In this document: positions 14,584 through 64,000 of the stretch, piece after piece
How positions within the stretch are numbered: the first letter of the stretch is position 1
How the letters are laid out: every line of letters begins with the position of its first letter
Source: Amaurobius ferox
Lineage: Eukaryota; Arthropoda; Arachnida; Araneae; Amaurobiidae
Direction of reading: 5' to 3'
Length of the DNA stretch: 64,000 bases
NCBI GenBank assembly: GCA_951213105.1
Contig: OX578140.1
Coordinates: 120,821,653 to 120,885,652, forward strand
Made by a program: the position numbers and the translations under genes
The notes under the pieces: model-generated
Told to the model about the DNA's origin: nothing
The model's input: the letters and a program-made list of their open reading frames with translations, nothing else
Database searches by the model: none

Positions 14584-14596
14584 AATTGTAGTACAG

Positions 14597-18101: not shown

Positions 18102-18129
18102 AGTATCATGTATGTTGTATACTCTCAAT

Positions 18130-25546: not shown

Positions 25547-26790
25547 AGATATGTATATTGATATAAGGCTATCTTATACAAAGAGCTAAAAATGTAATTT
25601 AGTATTAATAATGCTGGTAGAACAACCTTTAACAAAGCAGGCTTAATTGCATGCATTGATGTCTCTAGTAGCGTAGTGTGAGATTTTTGACCGGGGAGGC
25701 TGAAAATTTGGCAAACAATTTGGTATTACAAGTGTAATTTATATTTTAATTCGCATTTTCACAAGCCATATTTCAATAAGTTTATTTATTGCTAAATAAA
25801 ATAAAATAATTTTACATAAAAATGCAAAGAGTGGATGAAATGCACAAGATTTTAAAATGTTACCCACAAATACATACAAGATATAACATTTTAAATGTTT
25901 TCTTATTTTTATAAATTAGATGAATTTTTACAAACATTTTATTAATTAAATATGAAGTCATGGTCGTTTATAGGGGGAGGTAAGAAGGTGTCACACTCCC
26001 CCTTGGACATTCAATATAACAAAGGCGAGCATCAAGCCAGTCGATGTTGTACATCATGTGCTCGAGGTTACTTTACAGGCGCCTATGCTTGAAGTAAAAA
26101 CATATTAGAATATTATTAGTAAGTGATAGAAAAATATATCAGTTTTGTAAATATAAACAGTTAGAACTAACGCAATAAAGCAATTCAAAGGAGTGCATTG
26201 AAAATGGGTGAGAAATATATCTGGAACATAAGCTTAGATGAAAATCACTATAGTCAACAATGTCTTTAAACAATTTTGTATATTAATTATTTACAAATAC
26301 TATACTTTGAAAACTTAAAAATATCTTAACCACAATATGCTAAAAATCCGCTAGAAAATTATCAATGGCTTTTGTTTAGCAGAGATTCCTGTGTAACGTG
26401 ATTTTTAAAGGACAATCAGATTTATTCTTTCTAAAACTCCCAAATATGCAAGAGGATGCTTCGCCATTTTGTTGCTGTGACTAAGTCTACTTCACAAACT
26501 ACTGAAGTTTAATGGTAGTCATAGTATGAAGTTTAATGGCAGTCATAGCAGACCTAGTATGTTTCTTCGTCTTTACATTCTTTAAATTTAAATGAATGTC
26601 ATGTTATTCGTGGAAAATGCCTCATATATTTTAGTATTACATATGACTATTTTCTGCGAAGATTAATTAATAGAACCATGTTTGACCCAAAATGGCGGAT
26701 CTCTCAGCCTTGCCCAAGAAATTTTCCTTCATGAGACGTTACGTCCCATATCCATCCATTGTCTGTTTATAAAGGGTTGAAAATGTATGT
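25547..26790. other. AT-rich sequence, no gene seen
   Basis: No coding domain or shared repeat was recognised. A GGGGGAGG / CCCCC pair near 25973-26004 can form a weak hairpin. Confidence 0.35.
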
Positions 26791-26860: not shown

Positions 26861-26997
26861 AGCTAGCTTATCAGCCAGGGCGGAGTTTAACAGGTGGGCG
26901 GTTCTAATACCACATTTCTTTCAATGCACCGTCAAGTTCTAGATATACGTTTTAATGGGAAAAATACTTTGAAACGTTTCATTTTAAGTCAGTAAAG

Positions 26998-27262
26998 TTG
27001 TTGTTGAGACCCATGACATCCAGATCGTCCGACTTACCAGAAAGGTGTAAGGTAACTGTTTGGACGACCGGGAAGTGCCACCCAATTTAGACCGGAACCC
27101 AGTGGGGGAGGCATCTACAGGGACCATACCCTCCTTCCCCTACCACCAACCTCTCGGAAGAACTTACGAACCCACATGTTTAACGTGATCGTACTCCGCA
27201 TGAACACGACGGCAGTTGTGGCAGCGTGCAAATCCAGCGCAAAGCACCGGTATACCGCGCCC
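26998..27262 (-). mobile_element. tRNA-derived SINE with damaged head
   Basis: The tail, body and AACGTGATCGTACTCCGC block match the family on the minus strand. The head is altered: the B-box block is deleted and GCTAACCAATGGG is replaced by AAAGCACCGGTA, although the terminal TACCGCGCCC remains. No clear target duplication is visible. Confidence 0.75.
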
Positions 27263-27672: not shown

Positions 27673-29814
27673 CACAGCCGGTTTACACACAGGCCGTGGC
27701 ACCACTGAGGAGAAATTGTCGTGACGTCACGGTAAGAGGGGAGCATTCGGAAAGAAGAGAACAAAAATCCAAGCGCGATCAGCGTCCCTCGTGGAGTGGT
27801 TGATGATTGCAAAATGATTTTGAGGTTTTCGGAATGTTCTATTAGTTTTATAGCACCGTGTTTTGTGCATAATAAGTTGTTCTTATGTTTTATTACCATT
27901 TAACTGGCTGCTTTAGAGCCATTTTTTAAATAGTTTATATCTGCGTAATTATCAATGCCTCGCACGTGTTCCGTTCCCGGTTGTCGGTCGAACTATACCG
28001 CAATTTCTAAAAGTATAATGACTTTTCAACAAGAGCAGCAAAACAGCAGCCTGCCAACTTTAGAAGATATCAAGGTTTATTTTTGTACTATTCAAGGAGA
28101 AAATTGGACCCACCTTTCAATCGATGACAAGCTGTATCTTTTTAAAGTTCGCATTAATGTATCATCTGTGCCATGTGTTATTGCGAGTATCAGCATATGG
28201 CAAAAAAAACGTTCGATGTGTTTTTTGAAAATCTCCAGTGCAGTGAGAGGCAGCTACAAAAATGTGGAATACAATTTAGCCTAATTAAAAATAAACGTGA
28301 TCTGGATTTATTAATAATTGCATGTGAAACTGTGCATTCTACTCCATCACAACTTAATTATATCGAAGCCGCAGTGAAGCTGTTGGAGAAACAGAAGCAG
28401 GTATGTTTAGAAATTTGCACCGCCAAATTAGACTTTTTAATTGAACAAGTAAAACTGCTAGGAAAACCAAAAAATCAGCTTCGATTTTCACAAAAACTAT
28501 TTATTCTATGCTTTAAAATATACTTATCTAGTTTTTCGTGCTATAAGGTATTTAGAAATTCAAAGGTGTTGACATTGCCCCATGTGAGAACATTAAGTAG
28601 AATTTCAAAAAAGTTAAATGTGGATTCAGATTTTTTTAATCCGTGTAATAGTTATTTAAAACGTAGGGTACAATGTTTAAACGAAGACCAAAAATTTGTC
28701 TCTCTCTTAATTGATGAGATTTATGTTGATCCTAGGTATACGTTTAAATGTGGTAAATTTACCGGTGATTGTTTGGATAGTAATGAAAAAGCAAAAACTG
28801 TCCAACTGTTTTTGTTTACATCTACGTTTTCGAATTATAAGGATGTAATAGCAGTTGCCCCAGTTTCAACATTTACGGGACAAAAGCTCTATAATTTGGC
28901 ATCTATGTTAATTTGCAAGTTAAAAGAACTTGAACTTAATGTATTGTCTGTTATTAGTGATAACAACAATATTAATATAAGCATGTTTGCTTTTTTTAAG
29001 AAACACGATAAATTTAATGATGCTGTATATAATCCAAGTAATCCTGATATTCCTCTGTATTTGATGTATGATCCTGTTCATTTATTAAAATCTATAAGAA
29101 ATAATTAGTTAAATGTAAAAGACACTAAATTGCAGTACCCTGATTTCCAAAATAATGAAAACCTTAAAGAGGCACATTTTTCTGATTTACGGAATTTATA
29201 CAACTTTGAAAGATGTAAACTCCTTAAATTTTCTCACGTGTTAACATTAAAATTATTATATCTATCTAACATTGAGAGGCAAAAAGTATTCCTTGCATTA
29301 AAAGTATTCAATATTCAAAATTCTAATATTTATTAAAAATCAATTGAAGTGATTTTTCTCATCAGCAATGTGAAAATATTTCAAATTATATGTAAAAATA
29401 GAATTGTCACACAATATTTTTTGCTATTATACATATGGTTGTAGAAATTTTGATTTCATATTAATTGCATTGTTTACAGTAGTAGAAAAAAAAATGAAAG
29501 CTACTTAATATTCATTAACACTGGGTTTGTAACTGTAAAAGGATCTAGATTATATATAATTTTGTAATCATTTAGACAGAGTAGTTCTTGTTTTGTGGGA
29601 GCTCCAGTAAATGAATATACTCCCCCCCATCTAAGTTTAGATAATCTGTATGAAATTAACTGTGCTAAAATTTAGGCATAGAAATGAGTAAAAGTGTAAT
29701 TATTTTGAAATATTTTTAACTCTCAATTTGCAAGTTTTCCCGAATTAGCGAGAGTTCCCCTTCTAGCGTCACGTCATGATACTGGCGCCACGGCCTGTGT
29801 GTAGATCGGCTGTG
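27673..29814 (+). mobile_element. P-like DNA transposon, internally deleted
   Basis: 32-bp terminal inverted repeats start CACAGCCG, share TACACACAGGCCGTGG, and differ at three positions. The flanking host sequence ATTAAAC occurs on both sides (27666-27672 and 29815-29821), or eight bases ATTAAACC if the junction C is shared, which fits the 8-bp duplication of P elements. Subterminal GTGACGTCACG and GTCACGTCATG lie near the two ends. At 2142 bp with a truncated gene it is non-autonomous. The C-terminal part of the transposase is not present. Confidence 0.88.
27955..29336 (+). pseudogene. P-like (THAP/Transposase_P) transposase pseudogene
   Basis: It starts MPRTCSVPGCRSNY, the first Cys pair of a THAP zinc-binding domain, but the rest of the C2CH domain (conserved Trp, Pro, Cys-His) is missing, as if deleted. 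The frame runs through WTHLSIDDKLYLFKVRINVS until a one-base frameshift near the A run at about 28202. It then continues in the ATG-28173 frame with LLIDEIYVDPRYTFKCGKF, the RNase H-like core containing a catalytic Asp of P/THAP9-type transposases, and YDPVHLLKSIRNN. There an expected Trp codon is TAG (29106-29108). The same frame stays open to 29336. So it has a deletion, a frameshift, a nonsense codon and a lost C-terminus. Confidence 0.88.
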
Positions 29815-36689: not shown

Positions 36690-36768
36690 GTTGCTCAAGT
36701 TTTTTACTCTTAACATTGTAGGATGTAGCTTATTTTGTTTTAAATAACCACGAATAATAGTAAAATGA
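36690..36768 (-). pseudogene. Second Penelope-like fragment, part beyond the Helitron
   Basis: The end of this segment (TAGTAAAATGA) aligns with TGGTAAAATTA at 35939-35949 in the first fragment. The match continues across the Helitron at 38359. It is short and diverged. Confidence 0.45.
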
Positions 36769-37100
36769 CTAGCCGAATACCCGTTGAATATCAACGGTCT
36801 CGCAATAAGCAATCCCTCAGTAATGTAAATTTTTGAATAATTCGCGTTTCACATTTATTCGCCAAATCTAATATTTTGGTGTGCAGAACCCTCTAAAGAA
36901 GAAAATATTAGGAAACTTAATTTGCTCATTTCTTCCTTTGGAACTGTTTACCCTTACACCACATTAAAGTTATCTCTTCCCGAAGCATGCTATTTTATTA
37001 TTTCTCCTTTCGAACGTTTTTCTGTGAAGCACACCCGTAAATGAACATTTCAAAATAACTCTGTTTGTCTTGGGTTTTTTATCAGATGATTGGCTCATAT

Positions 37101-37158
<58 letters not shown>

Positions 37159-38358
37159 GCCTCTATCACATCTAAAAGGAAACGTGCCTCATTTATTTGG
37201 AAAATCGAACATATTAGTGAGCGGCTCCCCTTAAAGTAGCAAATATTGGAAATCTGAAATTTCACACTTTCTTTCTTTCAAACTATCTACCCGTACACCA
37301 AATTTGAAGTCTCTATCCTATCGCGGAGCATGTTTTTCTACCACCTCACCTTCGAACGTTTTTCTGTGTAGCACTCCGTTAATGAACATTTTTGTCAAAC
37401 CGTATTCATCTTTGTTTTTTTGTCAAATAGTTAGCCCATATACTAAGTTTTAAGCCTCTATCACATTGTAAAGGAGACGTTTTTCATTTGTTCGGCAAAT
37501 CGAACATTTTAGTGAGCGGCATTCTCTACAATAGCAAATGTCGGAAAACTGAAATTGCATACTTTCTTCCTTTCCAACTTTTTACCAGTACACCAAATTA
37601 GAAGTCTATATCTCATCAGGGAGCATGCTTTTCTAGATTTTCACCTTTCGAATGTTTTTGTGTGGAGTACCCACCTCCATAAATATACATTTTTGAAAAA
37701 CTCTATTCTTCTTGTGATTTCTATCAGATGATTTGCCCATATACCAAATATCAAGCCTTTATCATGTTTTAAATGGGGAGTTAGTTCATTTTGGTGTGCG
37801 CCACCCCCTAAAGTAGAAAATATTGGTAAACTGAAATTGTACACTTTCTTCCTTCCAAACTATCTATCCCTACTCCAAATTTGATATCTCTATCTCATCC
37901 CGAAGCATGTTTTTTTATCAATTCACTTTTCGAACGTTTTTCTCTGGAGCACCTCCTTAAATGAACATTTTTACAACATTTTTACACATGCGGCACCCCT
38001 TAAGAAGAAAATATTGGAAATCTGAAATTGCACACTTTCTTCCTTTCAAACGATTTACCCATACACCAAATTTGAAGTCTCTATCTTATAGCAAAGCATG
38101 CTTTCCTATCATTTCACTTTTCGAACGTTTTGTTATGGAGCATCCCCCCCCCCCCCTTAGAGAACGTTTTCGAAAAATTTGATTTTTACAGGGTTTTTTA
38201 TCAAACGACCGAGCCGTGTACCAAATTGCAAGTCTCTATCTATTCGTGAAGTGCCTAAAAATGCGTGACAGACGGACAGACGGACGGACAGGCAGACAGA
38301 CAGACAGGCAGACAGACAGACAGACAGACGGACACTTGGCAATTAGTATATATATAGA
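36769..38358 (-). mobile_element. Helitron A with internal ~297-bp repeats
   Basis: On the minus strand it starts TCTATATATATACTAATTGC (38358) with a (GTCTGTC)n tract and ends CAACGGGTATTCGGCTAG (36769), where CCGTTGA-TAT-TCAACGG forms a perfect terminal stem-loop before CTAG. Host A precedes TC and host T follows CTAG, with no duplication. The first Penelope-like fragment supplies an empty-site paralogue. The body is made of about five ~290-bp units, each of two related halves (GATAGAGRCTTSAAATTTGG). A (CT)n tract at 37107-37157 has grown inside one unit. There is no Rep/helicase. Confidence 0.88.
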
Positions 38359-38720
38359 TAGTATTGTTGATGTATCTTTCAGAAATAAGTTTACAGGAAG
38401 ATTTGGAAAATTTTTAAATAGCACGATCGACTCTGCTAGGAGAGAAACGACGATCAACAGCAACAACTTTTAAATAATTGATCTGCGAATTGAGCAAATC
38501 CACAGTGGAACAAACTTTCAAAGCACGATGGACAAACGTATTGAAAACAGCTAGTTTTCGATTGGGTAGATGGGAGGAGTTTTTAAGTGGAGGTAAAGAG
38601 ACCGAAAAAGGTTTACACTAAAACCGTGGGTAGAAATTAATTATCTTTATGGGTCACCAAAACATCCAAAAATACAATACGATTGTTGTTTTCTATTTCA
38701 TAAATAAATTGGATATAAGG
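38359..38720 (-). pseudogene. Second Penelope-like fragment, linker region
   Basis: This is collinear with 35950-36290: TTTCAGAAATAAGTTTACAG, AGCACGATGGACAAACGTATTGAAA and CAATACGATTGTTGTTTTCT match the first copy at the same spacing. It encodes the post-RT linker in decayed form. Helitron A is inserted at its left edge. Confidence 0.65.
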
Positions 38721-39317
38721 ATAAAAAGAATTCAGAAAGAAATTGGTTTTGATTTTATTGAAACTCGATTATATACATTAAATTTGCATTATATGGGATT
38801 GTTTGGAAGACAGGAAATAATAAGACCGAATAAAAATGGTTTATAAAATAAAAATTATGGTTTAATAAAATTATACCATAATTAATTAACAAGAATAAAT
38901 TTATGAAATTGGGGGGTTTAGAAATGGTCTGTTTAATATAAAATGCATTAGACATAATATCATTTTGTATGTGTTAATTTTAAATTATGTTAAAAATATA
39001 GTATATATCTTACTGGTTAGGCATTTGAATACTGTTCTTTTCCTCTACTGTTCTCTTATTTTCTTAGTTGTCATTCCTATATATTATTGTATTTCATTGT
39101 AATACAATAATATATAATAGTATTTCTTTTATTTATAAGATCTTACTGTAAAAGTAAATTGCATTTTCTAATTACTAATTAAAAATCTGCTATGGTAATG
39201 AGTTAAATTCCAATCATTGCATCATGTAAAATGAAGTGATTCATATATGTGTTTCTTAGACGGCTGTAAATAAAATGTAAAATATATTTTAGAACTTAAA
39301 TCTGTTTTTACTAACAA
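38721..39317. other. AT-rich sequence with a palindrome
   Basis: A 16-bp perfect inverted repeat, TATATATTATTGTATT with a 7-base loop, lies at 39078-39116. No gene was seen. Confidence 0.45.
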
Positions 39318-41684
39318 TCTATAGTATATACTAATTGTCAAGTGTCCGTCTGTCCGCCTGTCACGCTCTTTTTAGGCACTTCCCAAATAGATAGAGACTT
39401 GCAATTTGATACACGGCTCGGTCGTTCGATAAACCCCCCTGGAAAAATGGAATTTTTCGCAAACGTTCTCTAGAGGGGGTGCTCCACACCAAAATGTTTG
39501 AAAAGTGAAATGATAGGAAAGTATACTTTGTGCGAGATAGAGACTTCAAATTTAGTGTATGCGTAAACCGTTCGAAAGAAAGAAAGTGTGCAATTTCAGA
39601 TTTTCAATATTTACTACTCTAGGGGGTGTCGCGAGCTCAAATATTCGATTTTCAGAAAAATTAGAAGCGCTTGCTTTAAAATTCGACAGAGGCTTGAAAT
39701 TTAGTATATGGGCTAATCATTTAATGAAAACACCCAATACAAAAGAGTTTTTAAAAAATGTTCGTTTATGAGGATGCTCCAAAGAAAAGCGTTCGAAAGG
39801 TGAAATGACGAGACGAGAAACCACGCTTCGAGATGCGATAGAGACTTCAAATTTGGTGTATGGGTAGATCGTTCGAAAGGAAGAGCATATGCAATTTCAG
39901 TTTTTCGATATTTTCTACTTTAGGGGGTTCCGCAAACTCAAATGTTTGATTTTCTGAGTAAATGAGAAACGCCTCCTTTAAAAATGTAAGAGACTTGATA
40001 TTTGGTATATGGGGAAATCATCTGAAAGAAACAAAATAAAGTTTTTCAAAATTGTTCTTTTAAGGGAGTGGCTGGCTACTCCACACAAAAGCGTTCGAAA
40101 AGTAAAATGATAGTAAAAATATGCTTCGCTAGGGTCTAGAAACTTCAAATTTGGTACATAGGTAGATAGTTCAAAAGAAAGAAAGCGTGCAATAGAAAAT
40201 TTCCGATATTTGCAATTTTGAGGGGTTCCGCACACCAAAACGCTCGAAAAGGGAAATGATTTAGAAACATACTTTGCGATGAGATAGAGACTTCAAATTT
40301 GGTGTTTGGGTAAACCGTTCGAAAGTAAGAAAGTGTGCAATTTCAGATTTGTAATATTTTCTACTTAGTGGGAGCCGCACACCAAAATGTTCGATTTTAC
40401 GGAAAAATGAGAAACGACTTCTTCAAAATTTGATAGAGGCTTGAAATTTGGTATATGGACTAATCATTTGATTAAAACACCCAAGACGAATATAGTTTTT
40501 CAAAAATGTTCGTTTAAGGGGGGGGGGGGAGACGGAGGAGGAAAACGTTTGAAAGGTGAATTGATGACAAAACATGCTTTGGAAAATGAGATAGATATTT
40601 CAAATTTGGTGTACGGGTAGATAGTTTGGAAGGAAGAATGTGTACACTTTCAGTTTTCCAATATTTTCTCCTTAAGAGGGTGCGGCTCACAAAATTTTCG
40701 AAATAAAGGAGAAACGCCCCTTTTAAAACGTGATAGAGGCTTGATATTTCATATATGGGCGAATCATCTGATGGAAAACCCAAGAATAATGGAGATTTTC
40801 AAAAATGTTCATTTAAGGGGATGGGTACTCAACACAAAAAACTTTCGAAAGGTGAAATGATAGAAAAGGCATGCTTCGCGATGAGATAGAAACATCTTAT
40901 TTGATGTACGGGTAGATTGTTGCATTGGAAGAAAGTGTGTAATTTTATTGTTCCAACATTTGTTATAGTAGGGAGTGCCGCACATTGAAATATTCGATTT
41001 CACGAACAAATGAAAAACGCTTCCCTTACAATGTGATAGCGACTTGAAATTTGATATATGGTCTGATCATTTGATAAGTACATTTGGTGCATACGTTTTT
41101 TCATAAATGTTCATTTGAGGGGATGCTACACAGAAAAACGTTCGAAAGTTGTAATGACAGTAAATGCGTACTTCGTGATAAGATAAAGATTTCAAATTTG
41201 GTGTACGGGTAGATAGTTTGAAAGGAAGAAAGTATGCAATTTCAGATTTCCAATATTTGCTACTTTAGGGGGTGCCGCACGCCAAAATGTTCGATTTTTC
41301 GAATAAGTTATACACTCTTTTTTTAAAATGTGATAGAGGTTTGATATTTAGTATATGGGCCAATCATCTGATAAAAAACCCAAGACGAATAAAGTTTTCC
41401 TAAATGTCCATTTATGGGTGTGCTTCAAAGAAAGACGTTCGAATGGAGAAATGATAAAGTAACATGCTTCGGGGTGAGATAGAGACCTTAATTTTGTGTA
41501 TGGGTAGATAGTTCGAAAGGAAGAAGTGTGCAATTTTAATTTTCCAATATTTTCTTTAAGGGGTTCTGCATACCAAAATATTCGATTTGCCGATTAAATG
41601 CGAAACGCGAATTATTCAAAAATTTACATTATTCGGGGGGTTGCTTATAACGAGACCGTTGATTTTCAGCGGGTATTCAGCTAG
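39318..41684 (+). mobile_element. Helitron B with eight internal ~297-bp repeat blocks
   Basis: It starts TCTATAGTATATACTAATTG after host A (39317), followed by a GTCCGTCTGTCC tract, and ends with the stem-loop CCGTTGATTTTCAGCGGG then TATTCAGCTAG at 41684. The block ATGCTTCGCGATGAGATAG recurs at about 39530, 39825, 40120, 40266, 40573, 40870, 41167 and 41462. Spacing is ~295-307 bp except for one internal deletion. Its last base is followed directly by the TC of Helitron C. It is non-autonomous. Confidence 0.88.
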
Positions 41685-43316
41685 TCTATATATACTAATT
41701 GCCAAGTGTCCGTATGTCTGTCTGTCTTTCTGTCACGCCTTTTTTAGGCACTTCCCGAATAGACAGAGACTTGCAATTTGATAAACGGGTCGATCATTCG
41801 ATAAAACCGGCTGGAAAAATCGAACTTTTCGAAAATGTTCTATAGAGAGGTTGCCCCACATCAAAACGTTCGAAAAGTAAAATAATAGAAAAGCATGCTT
41901 TGCAATGAGATAGAGATGTCAAATTTGGTGTATGGGAAAATCGTTCGAAAGGAAGAAAGTGTGCAATTTCAGATTTTCAAATATTCTAGTGCATTTTCAA
42001 ATATTCTAATTTAGGGGGTGCCGCAAACCCAAATATTCGATTTTCCAAATAAATGAGAAACGCATCCTTTGAATTTTGATAGAGGCTTGAAATTTGGTAT
42101 ATTTGCTAATAATGAAAACATCCAAAACGAATAGAGATTCTCAAAAATGTTCGATTAAGGGGGTGCTGCAGAGAAAAACGTTCGAAATATGAAATGATAA
42201 AAACATGTTTCAGGATGAGAGAGAGATTTCAAATTTGGTGTACTGGTAGATAATTTGGAAGAAAGTGTACAATTGAAGTTTTTCAATATTTTCTAATCTA
42301 GGGGGTTGCGCTCACCAAAGTGTTCGATTTTCGGAATAAAGGAGAAACGCCCTTTTTAAAACGTGACAGAGGCTTGATATTTTATATATGGTCGAATCAT
42401 CTGATAGAAATCCCAAGAAAAATTGAGATTTTCAAAAATGCTCATTTAAGTGGGTGGGTACTTCACGCAAAAACATTCGGAAGATGAAATGATAGAAAAG
42501 CATGCTTCGCGATTAGATAGGGACTTCTAATTTGGTGTACGAGTAAGTTGTTGGAAAGGAAGAAAGTGAGCAATTTCTGTTTTCCGACATTTGCTATTGT
42601 AGAGAATGCCGCTCACTAAAATATTCGATTTAACAAACAAATAAGAAACGCCTCCTTTACAATGTGATAGCTGTTTGAAATTTGGTATATGGACTAATCA
42701 TTTGATAAAAAACCCAAGATGAATGCAATTTTTAAAAATGTTCATTTAAGGGGATGCTACACAGGAAAACGTTCGGAAGGTGAAATGATAGTAAAAGCAT
42801 GCTTCGCGATCGGATAAAGACTTCAAATTTGTTGTACGGGTAGATAGTTGGAAAGAAAGGAAGTGTGCAATTTCAGATTTCCAATATTTACTTTAGGGTA
42901 CCTTACACCAAAATGTTCGATTTTTCGAATAAGTTATATACGTTTCCTTTTAAATGTGATATATGCTTGATATTTGGTATATGGGCCAATCATCTGATAA
43001 AAACCCCGAGACAAATAGAGTTTTTTTCCTAAATGTCCATTTATGCCTGTGCTACACAGTAAAATGTTCGAAAGGGGAAATGATAAAATAGCAAGCTTCG
43101 GGATAAGATAAATACTTTAATTTTGAGTACTGATAGATAGTTCGATAAGAAAAAGAGTGCAATTTAAGTTTTCTATTATTTTTCTCTTTAAGGGGTTCTG
43201 CACACCAAAATATTCGATTTGCCGAATAAATGTGAATCGCGAATTATTCAAAAATTTACATTATTCGGGGGGTTGCTTATTGCGAGACCATTGATTTTCA
43301 ATGGGTATTCGGCTAG
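41685..43316 (+). mobile_element. Helitron C, head-to-tail with Helitron B
   Basis: TCTATATATACTAATTGCC at 41685 abuts the CTAG of Helitron B without a spacer base. Five ~292-310-bp internal blocks follow (near 41893, 42203, 42502, 42798 and 43090). The end is CCATTGATTTTCAATGGG, a stem-loop in which a compensating change keeps pairing, then TATTCGGCTAG at 43316. The next host base is A, not T. It belongs to the same family as A and B. Confidence 0.88.
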
Positions 43317-50815: not shown

Positions 50816-52211
50816 TACTCATTGCCATAAAAATTTGCGCACCAAGAAAGAGTTGTCAGAATCGAGCAAAATTTTATATATGTGAGTGCAACGTTGATAT
50901 AAGTGATACAAAATCAAAGCAGAAGGATCATTTATTACAGGAAAAACAACAAATGAATGGAGGTTCTAGTGCCCTGTTGGACCACCTCCAGCGTGAGTAC
51001 ACGATGCGATACGGGCGGGCATTGAGTCATACAGGTCCCGTATGGAATCATCTCATGCCACAGTTGTTGTAAGGGTGCCTCTAGTTCAACCAAACTCGTA
51101 GGCTGTTTAACTTGCCGTCCCAAGTGATCCCAGACATGCTCGATCGCTGACAAATCTGGGGATCGGCCAGGCCAGGGAAAGGAGGTAATGTGTGGAAGGC
51201 ATTCCTGTGACACCCTTGCTGTGTGTGGCCGAGCACTGTCCTGTTGAAAAATGCCTTCTGTGAGCCTTGCCATGAGTGGCAACACATGTGGCTGAAGGAT
51301 GTCACGAACGTACTGTTGGGCTCTCATGGTTCCATGGATCAATATTAGTGATGACAGGGTGTCGTATGTGACGGCACCCCATACCATCACACCAGCTGTG
51401 GGAGCGGTATGCCGCTGTAAAGCAAAGGCAAGATTGAGACGTTTACCACGGGACCTCCACACACGTACACGGTTGTCATCACTGCCCAAATTGAATCTCG
51501 ATTCATCGCGGAAGACGACCTAGTTCCATTCGATTGCAGTTCAATCCCATCGAGAGCGACACCACGCCAAACGGAGGAAACGGTGGGTGGATGACATTGG
51601 CAGCACACGTAATAGGCACCGCGATACCAAATGTCCTTCAGCCAGCTGACTCGTGATGGTACGGACAGACACAGGGGCTCGTAGTGAAGGTGCTGCCTGT
51701 GTCCGGATGGCGGACAATGATGCAGTTGGCCCTGCGCGTGCGTGTGGGTGATGTAACGGTCTTCTCGGCTATTGGTCTGCCGAGGGCATCTTGAGCCTGG
51801 CCGCCGAGTATGCGACCTCTCTCTCGTCCACTGGTCCCAGCACCTCCTCACAGTAAAGTCAGAACAGTCTAGGTGGCGGGCTACTGACCGAGCTGACCAC
51901 CCGGCTACCATCATCCCGATGATTCTTCCCCTCTCGAACTCTGACAGCTGATCATGTTATATTCGATGGCGGCGTAACGGCATCCCTAATGAAAAAGCGT
52001 CCCTCTGCAACAGATTTAATACAGGCAAAAAGCCTCTGCGTACCTTTTTTCTGCTCCAGGGAGAACGACGTTCAACGCCCTCTGGTGGCATTACATAATC
52101 ACGCTGTATTTCTAATCATTTGCTATCTGCCTGACACGCATCTTCATTCCAAATTTCGTTACGATCTCACAATTACTTCTTGGTGTGCAAATTTTCATGG
52201 CATTGGGGGTA
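50816..52211 (-). mobile_element. Tc1-like transposon, decayed
   Basis: Terminal inverted repeats start TACTCATTGCCATAAAAATT on the left and, reversed, TACCCCCAATGCCATGAAAA on the right. Both continue through TTTGCRCACCAAGAA. The ends lie on TA. The length of ~1.4 kb is typical of the Tc1 group. Confidence 0.85.
50935..51983 (-). pseudogene. Tc1-like transposase pseudogene
   Basis: The gene starts at 51983 with MPLRRHRI, is cut by TAA at codon 9 (51959-51957), and continues QLSEFERGRIIGMMVAGW and DCSDFTVRRCWDQW, the paired helix-turn-helix DNA-binding region. After a frameshift the catalytic part follows in another frame: VVFRDESRFNLG (first Asp), GVMVWGAV, FQQDSARPHTA (second Asp) and SPDLSAIEHVWD (Glu), i.e. 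a DDE triad with the last two residues just over 30 apart. The C-terminus runs to 50935. All three catalytic residues survive, but the stop and frameshift separate the two domains. Confidence 0.9.
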
Positions 52212-55975: not shown

Positions 55976-57221
55976 TAATATTTAACAGGTAATCGACTGC
56001 ACTATTTTTAAAACATCACTAAAACACATCAAAAGTGAACTTTGTAAAGATTGTCCACACCCCCATCATTCTAAACTATGCGGAAGAAAAATTTTCTAAT
56101 GACCTACACATCGAAGAATCTCTTTTGCATGCTAAACAGTCCGCTTTTAGAACCCACCTTGGTCTGACATTTATGGGCAATTGTTGAACCCCAAGCGGGC
56201 GTTACCCTAATTGCTTGTTTTCTAGCTCCGTAATAGGCACGCGATCTCGAAATCACTACACAGCTCGGATCGTGTTATGCGCTGCACATAATCTCATGAC
56301 TGCACAGTTACGACATAAAAATCCGGAATAGAAAGCGCCTGGTATTTATATATTTGCTCTGGTGTCCTGTTTTTGTTAGTATTCAGACTAGTTTAAAGTC
56401 TTCCAATGCCAAGAGAGTTATAAATTGTGTGTTAACAATCATGCGGTATTTTATGGTCTAGGCCGTGTACATTTGTTTCATTTTTCCGCAGAATGTGCTG
56501 GGAAAGTATTATACTTAGGTTTCTAAAATGGTAAAAAAGAGTTTTCGAATAATATATATGCTTTGTCTGTCTGGTCATCTGAATCGTCTGTAGCGGAAAA
56601 TGAAAATTTCGGACATCGGCGCTGTTTGTTACACACGTACTTAAAGTCCCCGGATGATGGGGCTTGGCGAAATGTTTTATGGTCGCAGTCTTTCTCCATT
56701 TTTTTTTTTTTTTTATTTGCTCCCCGCTATATCGATTTCAGACGCGCCCCCTCCATCTACAAACCATGCTAAAACAGCCGTAAAAAAGCAACATAATGGG
56801 TGTTTTCCCGGTAAGTACATACCTTCTGCGTTCCCTTTAGATATTTTGCGCCCCACAGGTTGAGAACTGCTAGTCTAGACGAAGAAGGGGCTGTTTCGCA
56901 AAGTCGTATTCAAATTATCGGCTTTCCAGCTTTCGGAGTTTGAAAGGTTTCGTTTTAATTTTTCTGTAATTTGGTATTATATTATCATTATGAGTATCAT
57001 ACTCATATTAGTAAAATTCTGATGAAAACTAACTGAGATAGCAATTATTTATTTATTTTTTATTTTTATTTTTCCGTGTTTTCATCTGCGTCTTGATATA
57101 TGTCATCCCTCGTCGATCGGTTGAACACGCAATTTTCACTGGAGTATGAGGCGCTTATTAACAAAGGACTCATTGGGGCAGAAGCGCTCTGTTCTAGTAC
57201 ATTTCGTAGTCGATAGTTTAT
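55976..57221. other. Unassigned sequence
   Basis: Short frames near 56563-56863 are driven by a T run and show no domain. No gene was seen. Confidence 0.35.
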
Positions 57222-57242
57222 TATATATATATATATATATAT
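57222..57242. repeat. (TA)n microsatellite at the edge of the Naiad element
   Basis: A pure TA run of about 21 bases abuts the 3' pseudo-LTR. Naiad-type elements are reported to favour microsatellite targets. Confidence 0.85.
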
Positions 57243-57434
57243 ACATATAAAAATAAGTTAATCACGAACGGAACTCCTATTTAAGTAAAGGAAAAAACAG
57301 AAACCTTACAGAGGATGTGGCGCTTAGCAGCTCTGCATCCAGAGTGGCATATAAGGATATAAACAAGAAGAAAAAATAAGCGAGAACAGGAGTGACCATA
57401 TGATTTGCATAGAATGGCAGGGGTGGATTGCGAC
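57241..57434 (-). repeat. Naiad pseudo-LTR, 3' copy
   Basis: Its 194 bp are identical to 63427-63620 except CAGCTCTGC here for CAGCTTTGC there. It lies downstream of the gene on the minus strand. Confidence 0.92.
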
Positions 57435-57694
57435 ACCCCTTTCCCGCTTAAAGCAGCTTTTACTACCCGGGCAACGCTCACGGCACCAATGTAACTCAAT
57501 GGTCAATCTCCCACATGTGCAAAGACAGAAGCACCCGAACGGACACAAAAGCAAAGATGGAACCAAGCATGGAAGAGATACACCCTACAATCCAGCTTGA
57601 AAACACAACATTTTATAAGGGAAAGTCGCACATGCGCGATAAGACTTCATGATGATAGGATCGCAGATATGAAAATATATATGATTAAGAATAC
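57435..57694 (-). other. 3' untranslated part of the Naiad element
   Basis: This lies between the end of the reading frame and the 3' pseudo-LTR. A SECIS-type hairpin would be expected here if the element encoded a selenoprotein; I could not identify one by eye. Confidence 0.5.
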
Positions 57695-57925
57695 TCATTT
57701 AGAATCAAACAATGCACAATTTCTTTCTTTGAAAAAGGAATAGTAATAATGTTGTAAAAAATATCTAGGGTAATTTCTTTTTAATGCATCATTTATTATT
57801 TTATTACATTCATAAATGGTCTTTTTTAAAAGTACTGTAGTTTCTGTTTCTTCTGAAGTACCCGACAATAATATTTCTGAATATATTTTTAGTGAGGTTT
57901 GAATTCCAATCAATAATATTATTAA
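57695..57925 (-). pseudogene. C-terminal part of the Naiad protein, beyond the Helitron
   Basis: From 57925 the interrupted frame resumes, completes the Ile codon split by the Helitron, and reads NNIIDWNSNLTKNIFRNII before TGA at 57812-57810. In the frame one base away, TVLLKKTIYECNKII and ALKRNYPRYFLQ continue to a stop at 57695 and look like the end of an RT thumb region. So one indel lies near 57850-57860. Whether it is a lesion or a sequence error cannot be told here. Confidence 0.65.
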
Positions 57926-57991
57926 CTAGCCGCCTTTGGCGACCAGCCTGTTCGCTACCCTTGAAAATTCTGACCGTGGCAAACTCGTTGG

Positions 57992-59415
57992 CGCGACCTA
58001 CCAGAAAGGTTTACAGTAACTGCTTGGAAGGCCAGGAAGTGCCACACAATTTAGACCGGAACCCAATGGGGGAGGCATCCAAAGAGACCGTACCCTCCTT
58101 CCCCTACCACAAACCTCTCGGAAGGACTTGCAGTCCCACACGTTTAACGTGATCGTACTCCGCGTGAACACGGCTGCAGTTTTGGCAATGGCGGGAATCG
58201 AACCCGGGCCTACCGAGTGAAATTCCCGCGCGCTAACCACTGGGCTACCGTGCCATCCGCGACAATCTCCATAACTTTATTTTTATTCGGCAATTTTGGG
58301 AATCGAACCCGGGCCTACCAAGTGCAAATCCCGCGCACTAACCACTGGGGTACTTCACCCTCCGCGATATTCGTCATAACTTATTTTTTATTCACCCAAT
58401 TTAGACCGGAACCAAGTGGGAGAAGCATCCACAGGGACCGTACCCTTCTTCCCCTACCACCAACCTCTCGGAAGGACTTACAGACCCACATGTTTAACGT
58501 GATCGTACTCCGCGTAAACACGGCGGCAATTTTGGGAATCGAACCAGGGCCTACCGAGTGCAATTTCCGCGCGCTAACCATTGGGCTACTTTGCCCTACG
58601 CGACAATCTCCATAACTTTCTTTTTATTCATCCAATTTAGACCGTACCCTCCTTCCCCTACCACCAACTTCTCGGAAGGACTCACGGACCCACATGTTTA
58701 ACGTGCTCGTACTCCGCGTAAACACGGCGGCAATTTTGGGAATCGAACCCGGGCCTGGTAACTGGTTGGACGGCCAGGATGTGCCACGCAATTTAGACCG
58801 GAACCCAGTGGGGGAGGCATCCACAGGGAACGTACCCTCCTTCCCCTACCACCAACCTCTCGGAAAAACATACGGACCCATATGTTTAACGTGATCGTAC
58901 TCCATGTCAGTGGCGGAAATCGAACCCGGGCCTACCGCGTGCAATTCTCGCGCGCTAACCACTGGGCTACTTCGCCCTCCGCGACAATCTCCATAACTTT
59001 CTTTTTATTCACCCAATTTAGACCGTACCCTCCTTCCCCTACCACCAACCTCTCGGAAGGACTCACGAACCCACATGTTTAACGTGATCGTACTCTGCGT
59101 GAACGTGGCGTAAGTTTTGGCAGTGGCGGGAATCGAACCCTGGCCTACTGAGTGCAATTCCCGCGCGCTAACCACTGGGCTGCCGCGCCCTCCGCGACAA
59201 TCTCCATAACTTTCTACATATTCACCCAATTTAGACGGGAACCCAGTGGGGGAGGCATCCACAGGGGCCGTATCCTCCTTCCCCTACCACCAACCTCTCG
59301 GAAGGACTTACGGACCCACATATTTAACGTGATCGTATTCCACGTAAACACGGCGGCAGTTTTGGCAGTGGCGGGAATCGAACCCGGGCCTACCGCTAAC
59401 TTCCCGCGCGCTAAT
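57992..59415 (-). repeat. Irregular tandem array of SINE-derived units
   Basis: At least six SINE-derived units in the same orientation are separated by a recurring ~33-bp spacer (TCCGCGACAATCTCCATAAC plus TTTCTTTTTATTC) near 58254, 58355, 58592, 58978 and 59191. Most units lack the SINE tail and start at CCCAATTTAGACC. Only the first (57992-58252) and a block from about 58757 retain more of the 3' part. Each repeats the B box (GGGAATCGAACCC) and A-box region (GCTAACCACTGGGCTAC), so the array carries several polymerase III promoter remnants. Common spacers show unit-by-unit amplification, not independent SINE insertions. Confidence 0.85.
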
Positions 59416-59429
59416 TTGCAATTTAAAAT

Positions 59430-59590
59430 GACCATATGCTTAATTCCATCATCCTCATTCCATTGTTTCATTGTTCTATCATTTAAAATATCCATAAAAT
59501 TAAAATATCCATTTAAAATATCCAAAAGTTAAAATATACATTTAAAAAATCCAGATCGTCCCATCATTTAAAATATAAATATAATAATTT
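59430..59590 (+). repeat. AT-rich short repeats (TTTAAAATATCCAT)
   Basis: About eight imperfect copies of ATTTAAAATATCCA occur in a row inside Helitron D. Non-coding. Confidence 0.6.
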
Positions 59591-60110
59591 ATATAGAGCA
59601 AAGGCGCTCTATTCAGAACCGTGACGTCACCTCCACCTTGACGTCCCCACCCACCACCTTCCCTGCTTCAGCGGGGGAGAAACGAACGGAACGCCGAGAA
59701 ATTTAAAATCATGGCGTCTTTAAAATTGCCATCCTGAAGGCAATTTTCATTATTTCTGGACCACATTAGACTTGTAAAAATGCCAGATATTTCAGCTTTC
59801 TAAAAATGTAAATTATTAGTCGAAATTATGAGTACTTTTCACGATGCGAGAATTTAAAAACCAAAAATTGATTTTTTGAGCCAAAAGTGAGTTTTGTTTT
59901 AAAATCTTTAAAACATATTAGAAATCGAAATTCAGATTTGAAATTGATATATTTTTACTCGAAATTCTCTGCTCTTTCCGATGGTGTAATTTGTTTTTTT
60001 CTACGATGTCTGGATCGTGGAGAAAAAAGGGCAAAAAGGGCAAAAAACGGTCGAAATCGCATAAAACATTAAATAAATAAAAAAATAATTAAAATTTTCA
60101 AAATCGGTTT

Positions 60111-62681
60111 TCACGTGTCCCCTTCCCTCCCCCCCGGGTCTCCGATTGCCAAATTTCGTAGCTCTCCGACGCGCGGTCGCGAAACGTATAGTGTATAAGA
60201 CAGACACACAGACACACAGACATTGCCTTTTATTATATAGATTTTGATATTGTATGAATTTCTCTTGTCGTGTATGGTTGTATAAATTCCATACTGTTGG
60301 TGTTTTCTTATTGACAAGTCCAGGAAGTCTGTCGATCCATCCTCATTGATCGGGTTTTCAATTAAGTCTAATTCCCTTGGGTAGAATGCAAAATCTATGT
60401 CAGGGGTGTTTTCATAACCCCCTAATATCACATCGTCAACATAACGGAAATAAGGTATTTCCGATAATATATGGGTTCCTCTTTCATATTTGGATAGATA
60501 AATATCCGCCAATATTGATGAACATGCACCACCCATGGGTATGCCTTTGACCTGTTTGTAGTAATGCGTACCGTCATATAGTATGTTTTCATTCAATACC
60601 AACTCAATCAAATCCAAATATCTTCTGAGAGTTATATATGGTTTTAAATTATATTCCTCATGTAATTCTTTCAAGATCATTTGTAGGTTTGTTAAATCGA
60701 TGTTATTAAACAGATCCCGGAAATCGTAGCTTCTGAAGTTCAAATCTTTATGGCAAAATTTCAGTCGGTCTATCAATTCCTGTCCGTTTTTTAACATTAT
60801 GGAGTTTTGCTTCTTAATATCAGTTATAACATATTGGAGTAATTTCAGAAGTTTTTTATTTGCTTGTTCCAGGTACGATCCGCATCCCACTGTTACAGTA
60901 CGGAACTTGACTGGTTTTTTGTGTAACTTGGGAATAAGGATCAAGTATGGAAATTTTACTGATTTAATATCCATACCAATTCTTTTATACAGTGCTTTTA
61001 TTCTATTAGTGATGATTGATTCGTTGCTAGGAATTAAGGTATACATGGCACTATCCTTATAGCATTGTGTTAAAGTATCGACATAGAATTTTTTACACGT
61101 GAATGCAAAATTCGATACGATTTTGTCGGTGTATGTCATTACGAATTCTTCATTAAAATGTTTGATTGAAGACGGAAATCGAGAACCTCCTGAATCCTTG
61201 TTTCTTCTCGGGTAGAATTGGCAAAAAGCACTGTAAAAGGCATATTTCCATGCGTTAAAAGTTTGTACAGGTATACTGTGTTTGACTGCCATCTTGTATA
61301 TGAAGGTTTCCAGATCGTAATTAAATTCATTATAAATATTATTAAATTCTTGTATTCGGTACTTAGTACCAAGTTGTAATAAGTTTTTGAGTTTATTATC
61401 TTTTATAAAATCTAAGTTTCCAGTAATTATATGCTTGTGGTAGGGATCACAATGTATATTTTTATGACATTGACAGGATTCAATATTAAATGAAGACACA
61501 GTTTTACATAATTTATTGTAGTTGAGTAATCTTCTTCCGTTGGTTCTTACAAAGCGATAGGATATCTTAATATTTAGATTAGGCAAAGGAAGACGTTCTT
61601 CTATATTATGTAATATATGGTTGAATGGAATATTTTCGAACATTTTATTCTTAAATGTTGTGATAAAAAATTCTTTTGATTTGTTAATTTGATATTTTGG
61701 TTCAAGTGCTACATTATATTTTGCGGCTCTGAGTTTAATTAAATCCAGAATGATGTCTATATTAGTGTTTTTATCTTCTGTATTGCAGTTATTTTCACTT
61801 AAATTGAAATTTATAATAAAATTCCATATACGTTGTAAGTATTTGATCTTTATACTGTTGGCTATATTCTTGATCCATCCGAATTTCACCGTTATTTCTG
61901 TTTTTATGAAGTCTGAGATTTTTTCTTCTGTTTTGATGTAATTAAATTGTTGCTTTTTATTTCCTCTTTGGTGTCTATAAGTTTTCTTAGGTATTGAATT
62001 TTCAAAGAGAGAGTATGTTTGACTATTCCTGCATCTTTCTTTATTGCAATTTTCCTTGAATAATAAAGTATTCAGACCATATGGATATGCAGAATTATAT
62101 TGCTTTATATGGGTGTTTTCCCACCACAAGCGTTCAGAAAGTTCTGGTACTATATCAATAATAGTTACCATAATATTGCTGAAGGGGTGTACTTGAAAAT
62201 GCCGTATTTCTAAGTTATTATTGGTGGATAGCTGTTGGATTTTGCCCACTTGACTTCGGTGCAAATTTATACGGATATTCAGGGAATTCTGCGTCTGTCC
62301 TATATATTTCGCCTGACAAGCAAGGCATGATATGCAATATACCACATTAAAAGTCTTGCAAAAGATTTTTATATTGTCCTTTTTTGTAGAAATTTGGTGT
62401 GGATTGGCTACGGGACAAAGCTTACATCGCTTAGAATTGCATTTCTTGAATTTGAAGTTCTTCATATGGTGGTAGTGTTGATAAAAGTCGTTAAAAAAAG
62501 ATGATCGGTTATAGATCGTGTCATTCATTACGAAAGAATTTACATTTTTTATGTTTGTCACAGCATTATCAAGGACAATTGTACAAGGCTTAGAAACACT
62601 GCTCATCACTTGCTTCAATATAAAGATTAGGGTAACTGTATTTCGATAACACATATACCCTGATAATGTGTCACCGGGCAT
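60111..62681 (-). CDS. Naiad-type protein: N-terminal GIY-YIG endonuclease and reverse transcriptase, tail replaced by Helitron sequence
   Basis: An 856-codon frame starts at 62681, ten codons after a TAG. Cys-rich region at residues 81-123 (CNSKRCKLCP, CISCLAC) leads into the GIY-YIG domain: VVYC at 113-116, KYIGQTQNSLNIRINLHRS at 125-143, and Glu in RLWWENTHIKQYN (184-196). A linker carries the CxC motif ESCQC (401-405), diagnostic of the permuted Naiad/Chlamys group. RT motifs: LIPKLHKKP (582-590), SYDFRDLFNNIDL (651-663), KGIPMGGACSS (712-722) and catalytic YVDD (747-750). There are no in-frame TGA codons; this copy uses Cys throughout. Residues 814-856 are read from Helitron D and are not native. 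The protein would nick DNA and reverse-transcribe element RNA. The RT core looks intact, but the C-terminus is lost, so activity is doubtful. Confidence 0.92.
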   Translation of the reverse strand: MPGDTLSGYMCYRNTVTLIFILKQVMSSVSKPCTIVLDNAVTNIKNVNSFVMNDTIYNRSSFFNDFYQHYHHMKNFKFKKCNSKRCKLCPVANPHQISTKKDNIKIFCKTFNVVYCISCLACQAKYIGQTQNSLNIRINLHRSQVGKIQQLSTNNNLEIRHFQVHPFSNIMVTIIDIVPELSERLWWENTHIKQYNSAYPYGLNTLLFKENCNKERCRNSQTYSLFENSIPKKTYRHQRGNKKQQFNYIKTEEKISDFIKTEITVKFGWIKNIANSIKIKYLQRIWNFIINFNLSENNCNTEDKNTNIDIILDLIKLRAAKYNVALEPKYQINKSKEFFITTFKNKMFENIPFNHILHNIEERLPLPNLNIKISYRFVRTNGRRLLNYNKLCKTVSSFNIESCQCHKNIHCDPYHKHIITGNLDFIKDNKLKNLLQLGTKYRIQEFNNIYNEFNYDLETFIYKMAVKHSIPVQTFNAWKYAFYSAFCQFYPRRNKDSGGSRFPSSIKHFNEEFVMTYTDKIVSNFAFTCKKFYVDTLTQCYKDSAMYTLIPSNESIITNRIKALYKRIGMDIKSVKFPYLILIPKLHKKPVKFRTVTVGCGSYLEQANKKLLKLLQYVITDIKKQNSIMLKNGQELIDRLKFCHKDLNFRSYDFRDLFNNIDLTNLQMILKELHEEYNLKPYITLRRYLDLIELVLNENILYDGTHYYKQVKGIPMGGACSSILADIYLSKYERGTHILSEIPYFRYVDDVILGGYENTPDIDFAFYPRELDLIENPINEDGSTDFLDLSIRKHQQYGIYTTIHDKRNSYNIKIYIIKGNVCVSVCLSYTLYVSRPRVGELRNLAIGDPGGREGDT

Positions 62682-63426
62682 ATATTCAACATGGAATAAA
62701 TTTGCCAGTCGCTAAATTTATATATAGCCTTCATACATATTATATATCAACAGTTTTTTAACTCATGTTGAGGAGTAAGAACTTTAAAGTAAAAACAAAC
62801 GAAATGTTTTTTCATGTGCACTTTCAAATACAGTAAAAGCCTCATAGAACATTCAGGTATACTGCCTTCACTCTTGTCTATTTTATGCTGTATGACAAAT
62901 TTAAGCACTATTTTATACTTTTTTTGTAGTTATTTTGATTCATTCATAGAATTCGTTCTAAAATAGGTATTGAAAAATACCAGATTCAATAAAAGCGATA
63001 AAAATACTTAAAGCACTATTTTATACATTTTTTGTAGTTATTTAGATTCATTCATAGAATTCGTTCTAAAATAGGTATTGAAAAATACCAGATTCAATAA
63101 AAGCGATAAAAATACTTAAAAACACATAATTAAAAAATAAATGACTAAAGTACAGTGATTACACAAATGCATACCACACTATAATATACCACCATACATT
63201 TTCTCACAAGGTACAGAACTAAAATCAAAACATACGTAAAATGACTCTTACCGTCCTGATTACACCGCTCCAATATCCACCGGATGACTCCCATCCCACG
63301 ACACACGGAAGACCTACACTTCGCCAGTGTGGTCCGAGAAGTGGCCTTTACGTAGAAAGCTGAATTGGATGTGGTAAAATATGCACTATGTCCGCGCAAT
63401 GCAGCTGGATGTAGACATATTGATAA
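62682..63426 (-). other. 5' untranslated region of the Naiad element
   Basis: It contains a 108-bp perfect-looking tandem duplication at 62903-63118 (unit starts AAGCACTATTTTATAC). A 95-codon minus-strand frame at 63145-63432 ends at the pseudo-LTR and has no known domain. It probably serves as a leader or promoter; this is not shown. Confidence 0.5.
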
Positions 63427-63620
63427 ATACATATAAAAATAAGTTAATCACGAACGGAACTCCTATTTAAGTAAAGGAAAAAACAGAAACCTTACAGAGG
63501 ATGTGGCGCTTAGCAGCTTTGCATCCAGAGTGGCATATAAGGATATAAACAAGAAGAAAAAATAAGCGAGAACAGGAGTGACCATATGATTTGCATAGAA
63601 TGGCAGGGGTGGATTGCGAC
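63427..63620 (-). repeat. Naiad pseudo-LTR, 5' copy
   Basis: A 194-bp direct repeat of 57241-57434 with one substitution. Unrelated sequence (TAGTCCAATAC) begins at 63621. Confidence 0.92.
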
Positions 63621-64000
63621 TAGTCCAATACTTTACTCATTTTTAAGAAAATCACTTAATTTATCTTACAGACAGAGAATTGGGTATTACCCAAGAAAAT
63701 GCTGACAACAAATAAAGCGAAGCTTGAAATGATTGGATACACATTTAATGTAATATACATTATTAAAATTTATTCTTGCATTTCTTTACTTGCAAAATAG
63801 TCATCTATGACAGTTTGGTTACAGGTACTGAATCCTTTAATATCTATTACATTTTACAAATGAGCTAGGCGGATCCAAATGAACTTAATTTTGTGGCGAT
63901 AGTTTACTTTAAAACTCTGAATATTACCTTGGTCCAAAGGCTGTAACTTAGAAGTTGTGTTTGGTGGCATGAAATGAACTTTCACGGATTTTAATTTCGG
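63621..64000. other. Flanking sequence, no gene seen
   Basis: Host-side flank of the Naiad element, AT-rich, with no recognisable gene. Confidence 0.4.

What the first reader, a model, noticed from the sequence alone, without database searches (positions are those of the whole stretch)
57222..63620. Four-layer nest: (TA)n, Naiad retroelement, Helitron, SINE-derived array
Boundaries of each layer can be read directly: (TA)n against the pseudo-LTR, 194-bp pseudo-LTRs, Helitron TC/CTAG ends between A and T, and SINE units with common spacers inside the Helitron. This gives a relative insertion order. One mismatch between pseudo-LTRs suggests the Naiad is recent, so the Helitron insertion into it is more recent still and Helitrons may be active in this genome.
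Basis: partly seen in the sequence, partly recalled or inferred. Interest (0 to 1): 0.85.

Follow-up and report, generated by a model that had tools for sequence, protein, structure and literature searches.

The report
Helitron inside a Penelope-like retroelement
A short, apparently gene-less Helitron transposon carrying a tandem array made from SINE sequence has landed cleanly inside the reverse-transcriptase gene of a fairly recent Penelope-like (Naiad-type) retroelement; it is a well-preserved example of known processes, not a new kind of element.

Summary
The nest is real, and its main boundary is fixed to the base. A Penelope-like element with an N-terminal GIY-YIG domain (Naiad-type) lies on the minus strand between 194-bp direct pseudo-LTRs (57241-57434, 63427-63620; 1 mismatch). 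A 2,316-bp Helitron (57926-60241, minus; TC...CTAG, A|T target, no target duplication) interrupts the reverse-transcriptase frame. Joining the flanks restores the frame, and homology to relative P0001 stops and resumes at residue 798, so an assembly join is unlikely. The SINE part is probably not a fourth insertion at this locus. It is a tandem array of truncated tRNA-SINE plus a common spacer, with units 5-13% different, so it is probably older than the Naiad copy and came inside the Helitron. Stand-alone SINE copies lie elsewhere in the window, three with target duplications. The (TA)n 'layer' is not established: it touches one end only and may be the retroelement's own tail. 'Recent' is supported; 'currently active' is not shown. 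Copies elsewhere in the genome could not be sought. Tandem-repeat-bearing Helitron relatives, SINE-derived satellites and nested transposons are known. A neat example of modest interest.

The parts
63427..63620 (-). Upstream (5') pseudo-LTR of the Penelope-like element
   Evidence: 193 of 194 identical to the other copy
62903..63120 (-). 108-bp tandem duplication (2 copies) between upstream pLTR and the ORF
   Evidence: 98% matches; 97% (D7)
60242..62711 (-). Main part of the GIY-YIG + reverse-transcriptase frame (823 codons from the previous stop to the insert), interrupted by the Helitron
   Evidence: Pfam GIY-YIG at residues 122-207 (19.9 bits, below the 22.6 cut-off) and RVT_1 at 597-764 (33.3 bits, cut-off 29.6); relatives P0001-P0005 at 32-43% identity over 93-98% of the query, aligned
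57926..60241 (-). Helitron, 2,316 bp, taken as non-autonomous: 5' TC at 60241-60240, 3' CTAG at 57929-57926, inserted between A and T
59415..60241 (-). Helitron 5' portion, A+T-rich (34% GC)
57994..59414 (-). SINE-derived tandem array (54% GC): 7 segments (59414-59223, 59190-59010, 58977-58757, 58756-58640, 58589-58393, 58353-58299, 58254-57994) and 5 copies of a common spacer
   Evidence: one search gave 8 BLAST rows; a 14-nt row was merged into the segment 59190-59010. Unit alignment; 7 B-box matches on the Helitron's own strand, none on the other
58183..58254 (-). tRNA-like head of the best-preserved SINE unit
   Evidence: Rfam tRNA RF00005, model positions 1-71, 25.7 bits, below the gathering score of 29; no tRNA gene by ARAGORN
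57926..57993 (-). Helitron 3' terminus with GTCGCC-AAA-GGCGGC hairpin and CTAG
   Evidence: hairpin predicted but not more stable than shuffles: z -0.80 for the last 40 nt, +0.68 for the last 68 nt
57435..57925 (-). Rest of the retroelement: RT frame after the insert (38 codons to a stop, counting the one across the join), then 3' part
   Evidence: frame 2 matches P0001 799-840, E 1.7e-9; the best in the other two frames is 0.089; no Pfam match in either downstream piece
57241..57434 (-). Downstream (3') pseudo-LTR
57212..57240 (-). (TA)n-containing stretch against the 3' pLTR; either AT-rich target or a 29-nt element tail next to a possible 5-bp target duplication (TAGTC, 57207-57211 and 63621-63625)
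   Evidence: that 5-mer occurs in 3.9% of 5000 shuffles of the 51-nt left flank, so weak

Best explanation
Sequence of events. (1) In a Helitron ancestor elsewhere in the genome, tRNA-derived SINE sequence without its (CAA)n tail became part of the element, and a truncated SINE plus a spacer of about 33 bp was multiplied in tandem, giving an internal satellite-like array (inferred). (2) A Naiad-type Penelope-like element inserted here, leaving a copy with direct 194-bp pLTRs (the copy is shown, the route is inferred). (3) The Helitron, already carrying the array and presumably driven by an autonomous partner, inserted by the usual Helitron route between A and T of an AAAA|TTAA site within the RT gene, without target duplication, and broke that gene (insertion shown by the restored frame; mechanism inferred from the family).
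For: Joining the flanks at A|T restores the frame, and only the in-register frame of the downstream flank matches relatives: P0001 E 1.7e-9, P0004 1.7e-6, P0002 7.6e-6, P0003 1.1e-4, i.e. 4 of the 7 relatives searched. tblastn of P0001 stops at residue 798 at 60240 and resumes at residue 798 at 57926. Termini TC...CTAG, A|T target, no duplication: the criteria given for canonical Helitrons in PMC4067079 (passages). Array: one orientation, 5 spacers (4 exact over a 17-nt core, 1 with 4 mismatches), internal junctions shared by three units. Units are 87-95% alike in the 14 of 21 pairs with at least 100 shared columns, against 193/194 for the pLTRs, so the array probably predates the Naiad copy. 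Stand-alone SINE copies at 14298, 17950 and 23402 have direct repeats and CAA tails.
Against: No second copy of this Helitron was seen: only SINE matches occur elsewhere in the window, and the genome search did not complete. Relatives P0005-P0007 give no significant match to the 3' flank, and in tblastn only P0001 of 7 gave a piece beyond the insert at E 1e-4. The 3' hairpin is no more stable than shuffled sequence (45 of 200 fold as well, last 40 nt; 150 of 200, last 68 nt) and lies nearer the end than the roughly 11 bp given for canonical elements. The units are no closer to each other (mean 89.5%, 14 pairs) than to the stand-alone SINEs (mean 90.1%, 20 of 28 pairs) and did not form a clade in the tree, so one founding SINE is not proven.
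Confidence: 0.85

Rival explanations
1. The Helitron inserted first with few SINE units and the array grew or was rearranged at this locus afterwards.
For: Units d, e and f share the shortened GATTCCCAAAATTGCC joint, so at least some duplication was local to the array.
Against: Units differ by 5-13% (14 of 21 pairs with at least 100 columns) while the host element's pLTRs differ at 1 of 194 sites; that needs more time than this insertion seems to have had, unless already divergent units were shuffled.
Confidence: 0.08
2. Each SINE unit is a separate SINE insertion into the Helitron (true nesting).
For: Copies of this SINE with target duplications lie in the window, and the units are as close to those as to each other (90.1% against 89.5% on average).
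Against: All units lie in one orientation, none has a CAA tail, and 4 of 5 spacer cores are identical; separate insertions would bring tails and their own target duplications.
Confidence: 0.03
3. An assembly error joins unrelated repeats.
For: Repeats and tandem arrays are places where assemblies fail.
Against: Both joins fall exactly at Helitron-type ends, and the coding frame and protein homology continue across the insert. The number of units in the array could still be wrong.
Confidence: 0.02
4. (TA)n was a pre-existing microsatellite into which the retroelement inserted, rather than part of the element's 3' tail.
For: A Penelope-like protein prefers AT-rich DNA for cleavage (PMC11167929, passages).
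Against: (TA)n touches only one end; a possible 5-bp duplication (TAGTC) would place it inside the insert, and a 31-bp 3' tail is described for a rotifer Penelope (PMC3846280, passages). The 5-mer is weak (3.9% of shuffles).
Confidence: 0.5

Closest known systems
Naiad clade of Penelope-like elements (definition recalled: Craig et al. 2021, paper not held; the name is listed in PMC10941475, passages)
   Same: GIY-YIG ahead of the RT; no GIY-YIG match after it in this copy's pieces or in P0001 and P0003; direct pLTRs
   Different: RT clade not tested against named references; no hammerhead ribozyme match (a feature of other Penelope-like elements)
Canonical Helitrons (criteria as in PMC4067079, passages)
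   Same: 5' TC, 3' CTAG (CTRR), A|T target, no target duplication, a palindrome at the 3' end
   Different: No Rep/helicase gene found; palindrome nearer the 3' end than about 11 bp
Tandem-repeat-bearing non-autonomous Helentrons (oyster Cg_HINE, PMC7492417, passages)
   Same: Rolling-circle-type element with a central satellite-like array
   Different: Here canonical Helitron ends, and repeat units made of a tRNA-SINE that is also present as stand-alone copies in the window
SINE-derived satellites of squamates (PMC10702118, passages)
   Same: Tandem arrays made of parts of a tRNA-SINE
   Different: Here the array rides within a Helitron and is short (7 segments) and mixed

Membership tests
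Canonical Helitron | 5' TC and 3' CTRR ends | tested here: met
   TC at 60241-60240, CTAG at 57929-57926
Canonical Helitron | Insertion between A and T without target duplication | tested here: met
   A 60242 | T 57925; restored coding frame
Canonical Helitron | Palindrome/hairpin near the 3' end | tested here: inconclusive
   6-9 bp stem predicted in the last 40 nt, z -0.80, 45 of 200 shuffles as stable; z +0.68 for the last 68 nt; closer to the end than about 11 bp
Canonical Helitron | Rep/helicase protein (autonomous members) | tested here: not met
   6 of 6 open frames of 100+ aa overlapping the Helitron (RT frame not counted) were scanned: no Rep or helicase family; two weak matches below their cut-offs (AKAP28 E 0.038, HlyIII E 0.017) are taken as chance. 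A non-autonomous member is therefore proposed
Canonical Helitron | Several copies with the same ends at different sites | not tested
   The genome search did not complete; no second 5' or 3' end in the window
Naiad (permuted Penelope-like elements; definition recalled) | N-terminal GIY-YIG domain ahead of the RT | tested here: met
   Pfam order GIY-YIG 122-207, RVT_1 597-764 (GIY-YIG below the curated cut-off here, above it in P0001 and P0003; RVT_1 of P0003 just below its cut-off). Y94, Y105-I106-G107, R116 and E167 are invariant in 6 of 6 aligned sequences; that these are the catalytic residues is recalled
Naiad (permuted Penelope-like elements; definition recalled) | Direct pseudo-LTRs | tested here: met
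   194 bp, 193 identical
Naiad (permuted Penelope-like elements; definition recalled) | RT groups with named Naiad references in a tree | not tested
Penelope-like elements in general | Hammerhead ribozyme in the pLTR (described for other members) | tested here: not met
   No Rfam hammerhead at E up to 5 in 57200-64000; none of the 8 core-pattern hits in the window lies there
tRNA-derived SINE (array units) | tRNA-like head with A and B boxes | tested here: met
   Full-length Rfam tRNA match in one unit, 25.7 bits, below the gathering score of 29; A box exact in 2 places, B box exact in 6 of 7 matches (box patterns recalled)
tRNA-derived SINE (array units) | 3' tail and target duplication | tested here: not met
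   Tail absent from the units; tails in 4 and direct repeats in 3 of the 4 close stand-alone copies

The most novel reading that the evidence does not exclude
A canonical CTAG Helitron family in this genome serves as a vehicle that turns a captured tRNA-SINE into a mobile satellite: a ready-made array with repeated pol III-type A/B boxes is multiplied within, and scattered by, a rolling-circle transposon that moved recently.
Probability: 0.3. Interest if true: 0.45.

Novelty: new member of a known kind. Interest (0 to 1): 0.27.

Why it matters
The insert is delimited to the base by an interrupted reading frame, so this copy is a reliable anchor for defining the ends of this Helitron family without a consensus. 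If sister copies carry the same array, it would give one clear example of a SINE becoming a dispersed satellite through a Helitron. Otherwise it is routine transposon nesting.

Tried and rejected
Separate SINE insertions inside the Helitron: disfavoured (one orientation, no tails, shared spacers). Helentron/HINE rather than Helitron: rejected on ends and target. Hammerhead ribozyme in the pLTR: none found. Rfam at gathering score on the whole window: nothing; ARAGORN: no tRNA gene. The weak Rfam lines for a viral pseudoknot and tmRNA are below their gathering scores and treated as chance. Solved structures by sequence: one weak match, 8bgj_A, an RNA-directed DNA polymerase, E 0.0026, of no further use. 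Public collections: two Helitron 5'-end patterns gave 0 in viral contigs, but neither was the exact end of this element (the first demanded extra flanking letters, the second a variant), so they test little; SINE body 0 in viral contigs and 0 in genome contigs; RT relatives 0 confirmed of 20 stretches in viral contigs and 0 of 68 in genome contigs. These collections hold viral or prokaryotic DNA, so this says little. One search used Helitron limits a few bases off (57929-60242), corrected from then on.

Papers: listings seen were 0 papers; 20 of 60; 7 of 7; 1 of 1; 20 of 30; 5 of 5; 4 of 4. No listed title or abstract start described a tRNA-SINE array inside a canonical Helitron, nor did the passages seen of PMC10702118, PMC9659126 and PMC12692304. 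The library is partial, so that is not proof of absence in print.

On rechecking, the confidence of the best explanation was lowered from 0.88 to 0.85 and the separate-insertion rival raised from 0.02 to 0.03, because one search showed the units to be no closer to each other than to the stand-alone SINEs.
Full report
What was checked. The region 57.2-63.6 kb was read, searched for repeats and open frames and compared with proteins, RNA families and the rest of the window. The direct repeats at its ends are 194 bp long (57241-57434 and 63427-63620) and differ at one site. Between them, on the minus strand, runs a frame open for 823 codons up to 60242, with a GIY-YIG domain ahead of a reverse transcriptase. 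A search of about 5.8 billion proteins scored 5726 candidates and gave 7 with E up to 0.001; five of them (P0001-P0005) are 32-43% identical over 93-98% of the query, the best with E 1.2e-190. P0001 and P0003, the two scanned, show the same domain order, and the GIY-YIG residues are invariant in the six aligned sequences. This is the arrangement I recall for Naiad-type Penelope-like elements; the defining paper is not in the library, and I saw the name only in a classification table (PMC10941475, passages). No tree with named references was made.

The Helitron. On the minus strand the frame runs to ...ATC AAA A and is then cut by TCTATATAATAAAAGGCAATGTCTGTGTG..., ending 2,316 bp later in ...GGTCGCCAAAGGCGGCTAG, followed by TTAATAATATT.... 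Joining the flanks gives ...RNSYNIK-INNIIDWNSNLTKNIFRNI..., against ...RTAFDVKINCLISWNSNLHKNIFRNI... in P0001. Of the three frames of the downstream flank alone, only the one that this join brings into register matches relatives: P0001, P0002, P0003 and P0004 at E 1.7e-9 to 1.1e-4, but not P0005-P0007; the best in the other frames is 0.089. tblastn with P0001 stops at residue 798 and resumes at residue 798 on the two sides; the other six gave no second piece at E 1e-4. An A|T target, TC...CTAG ends and no target duplication are the canonical Helitron criteria as stated in PMC4067079 (passages). The 5' end pattern occurs once in the window and in none of 100 shuffles. The 3' hairpin is predicted but is not exceptional in energy (z -0.80 for the last 40 nt, +0.68 for the last 68 nt). 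All 6 open frames of 100 or more codons that overlap the Helitron, the RT frame not counted, were scanned against Pfam: no Rep or helicase match, only two weak ones below their cut-offs. It is therefore taken as non-autonomous.

The SINE-derived array. Stand-alone SINE copies elsewhere in the window show the intact element. A 288-bp copy lies at 14298-14585 and others at 23402-23689, about 17950-18102 and 26997-27226, with a divergent relative near 18990-19250. The flanks of the copy at 23402 share a 16-bp exact word and those of 17950 a 15-bp one; those of 14298 share 9 bp exactly, or 15 with one mismatch as read; 26997 shows none of 5 bp or more, and 18990 only 6 bp. The four close copies end in CAA repeats. 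Within the Helitron, 7 segments match this SINE, all in the Helitron's own direction (8 BLAST rows, one of 14 nt merged). In units that keep the joint, SINE position about 213 is joined through GAATAAAAAGAAAGTTATGGAGATTGTCGCGGA, or a variant, to the tRNA-like 5' end of the next unit. The 17-nt spacer core was found 5 times, 4 without mismatch and 1 with 4. None of the units carries the tail. One unit gives a full-length tRNA match, below the Rfam gathering score (25.7 against 29). The units are 87-95% alike in the 14 of 21 pairs with at least 100 shared columns (mean 89.5%). Against a simple single-founder story, they are just as close to the stand-alone copies (mean 90.1%, 20 of 28 pairs), which are closer to each other (mean 94.9%, 6 of 6 pairs). 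At three columns nearly all units share a state that the close stand-alone copies lack, but the divergent relative has the units' state at all three, so these may be old states. The tree does not recover the units as one clade. The argument for tandem duplication rests on the shared spacers and joints, not on the tree.

Relative order. Nesting proves that the Helitron is younger than the Naiad copy. Since the array units are far more diverged from each other (5-13%) than the two pLTRs (0.5%), the array very probably existed before this insertion and came with the Helitron: cargo, not a fourth layer. The age of the Naiad copy should be read with care. pLTRs arise from (partial) tandem copies (PMC11167929, passages), so they are not a strict clock, and one change in 194 allows roughly 0.01-2.9% (my arithmetic). 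The long open frame supports recency. The frame shift implied after the insert (the in-register frame stops 38 codons on, and weak similarity to the relative's last part, E 0.089, lies in another frame) argues for some decay or a sequence error.

The (TA)n. It abuts only the 3' pLTR. A 5-bp repeat TAGTC (57207-57211 and 63621-63625) would put (TA)n inside the insertion, as part of a 29-nt tail; a 31-bp tail and short target duplications are described for a rotifer Penelope (PMC3846280, passages). That 5-mer turns up in 3.9% of 5000 shuffled flanks, so the matter is open at about even odds.

What is known. Helitron-group elements with central tandem arrays are well described (PMC7492417, passages; PMC12692304, passages), and so are satellites made from SINE parts (PMC10702118, passages). 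In the listings (20 of 30 papers shown; 5 of 5) no title or abstract start described a tRNA-SINE array inside a canonical Helitron, but the library is partial. The likely verdict is a new, cleanly delimited member of known kinds. Whether the array-bearing Helitron is a family or a single event needs the genome, which ten calls could not reach (8, 15, 20, 24, 33, 37, 47, 52, 58, 61).

Noticed in passing
14298-14585, 23402-23689, 17950-18102, 26997-27226: Stand-alone copies of a tRNA-derived SINE with CAA-repeat tails; three show direct repeats at their ends.
   Followed up: partly
485-1434, 7226-8165, 16667-17590, 24590-25547: A roughly 950-bp repeat in four copies, 83-89% alike pairwise, beginning with a motif like CTTTCCTTATATACATAATGTATAAGGAAAG; perhaps a non-autonomous DNA transposon family.
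   Followed up: no
13123-13740: A 29-bp tandem array, 21.3 copies, 99% matches.
   Followed up: no
36762-43316: A block of long, diverged, partly inverted repeats, including two copies of about 1.6 kb in tandem (40220-43316, 81% matches) and inverted relatives at about 36.8-38.3 kb.
   Followed up: no
50935-51956 (-): Two overlapping frames, one with a DDE_3 domain (E 1.8e-12), one with helix-turn-helix matches below their cut-offs, resembling a broken Tc1/mariner-type transposase (the Tc1/mariner label is recalled).
   Followed up: no
28158-29108 (+): Open frame of 316 codons with a TNP-like RNase H domain (PF21787, E 2e-13), perhaps a P-element-like transposase remnant (the P-element label is recalled).
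   Followed up: no
62903-63120: 108-bp duplication, 98% matches, between the upstream pLTR and the ORF of the retroelement; its role is unknown.
   Followed up: no
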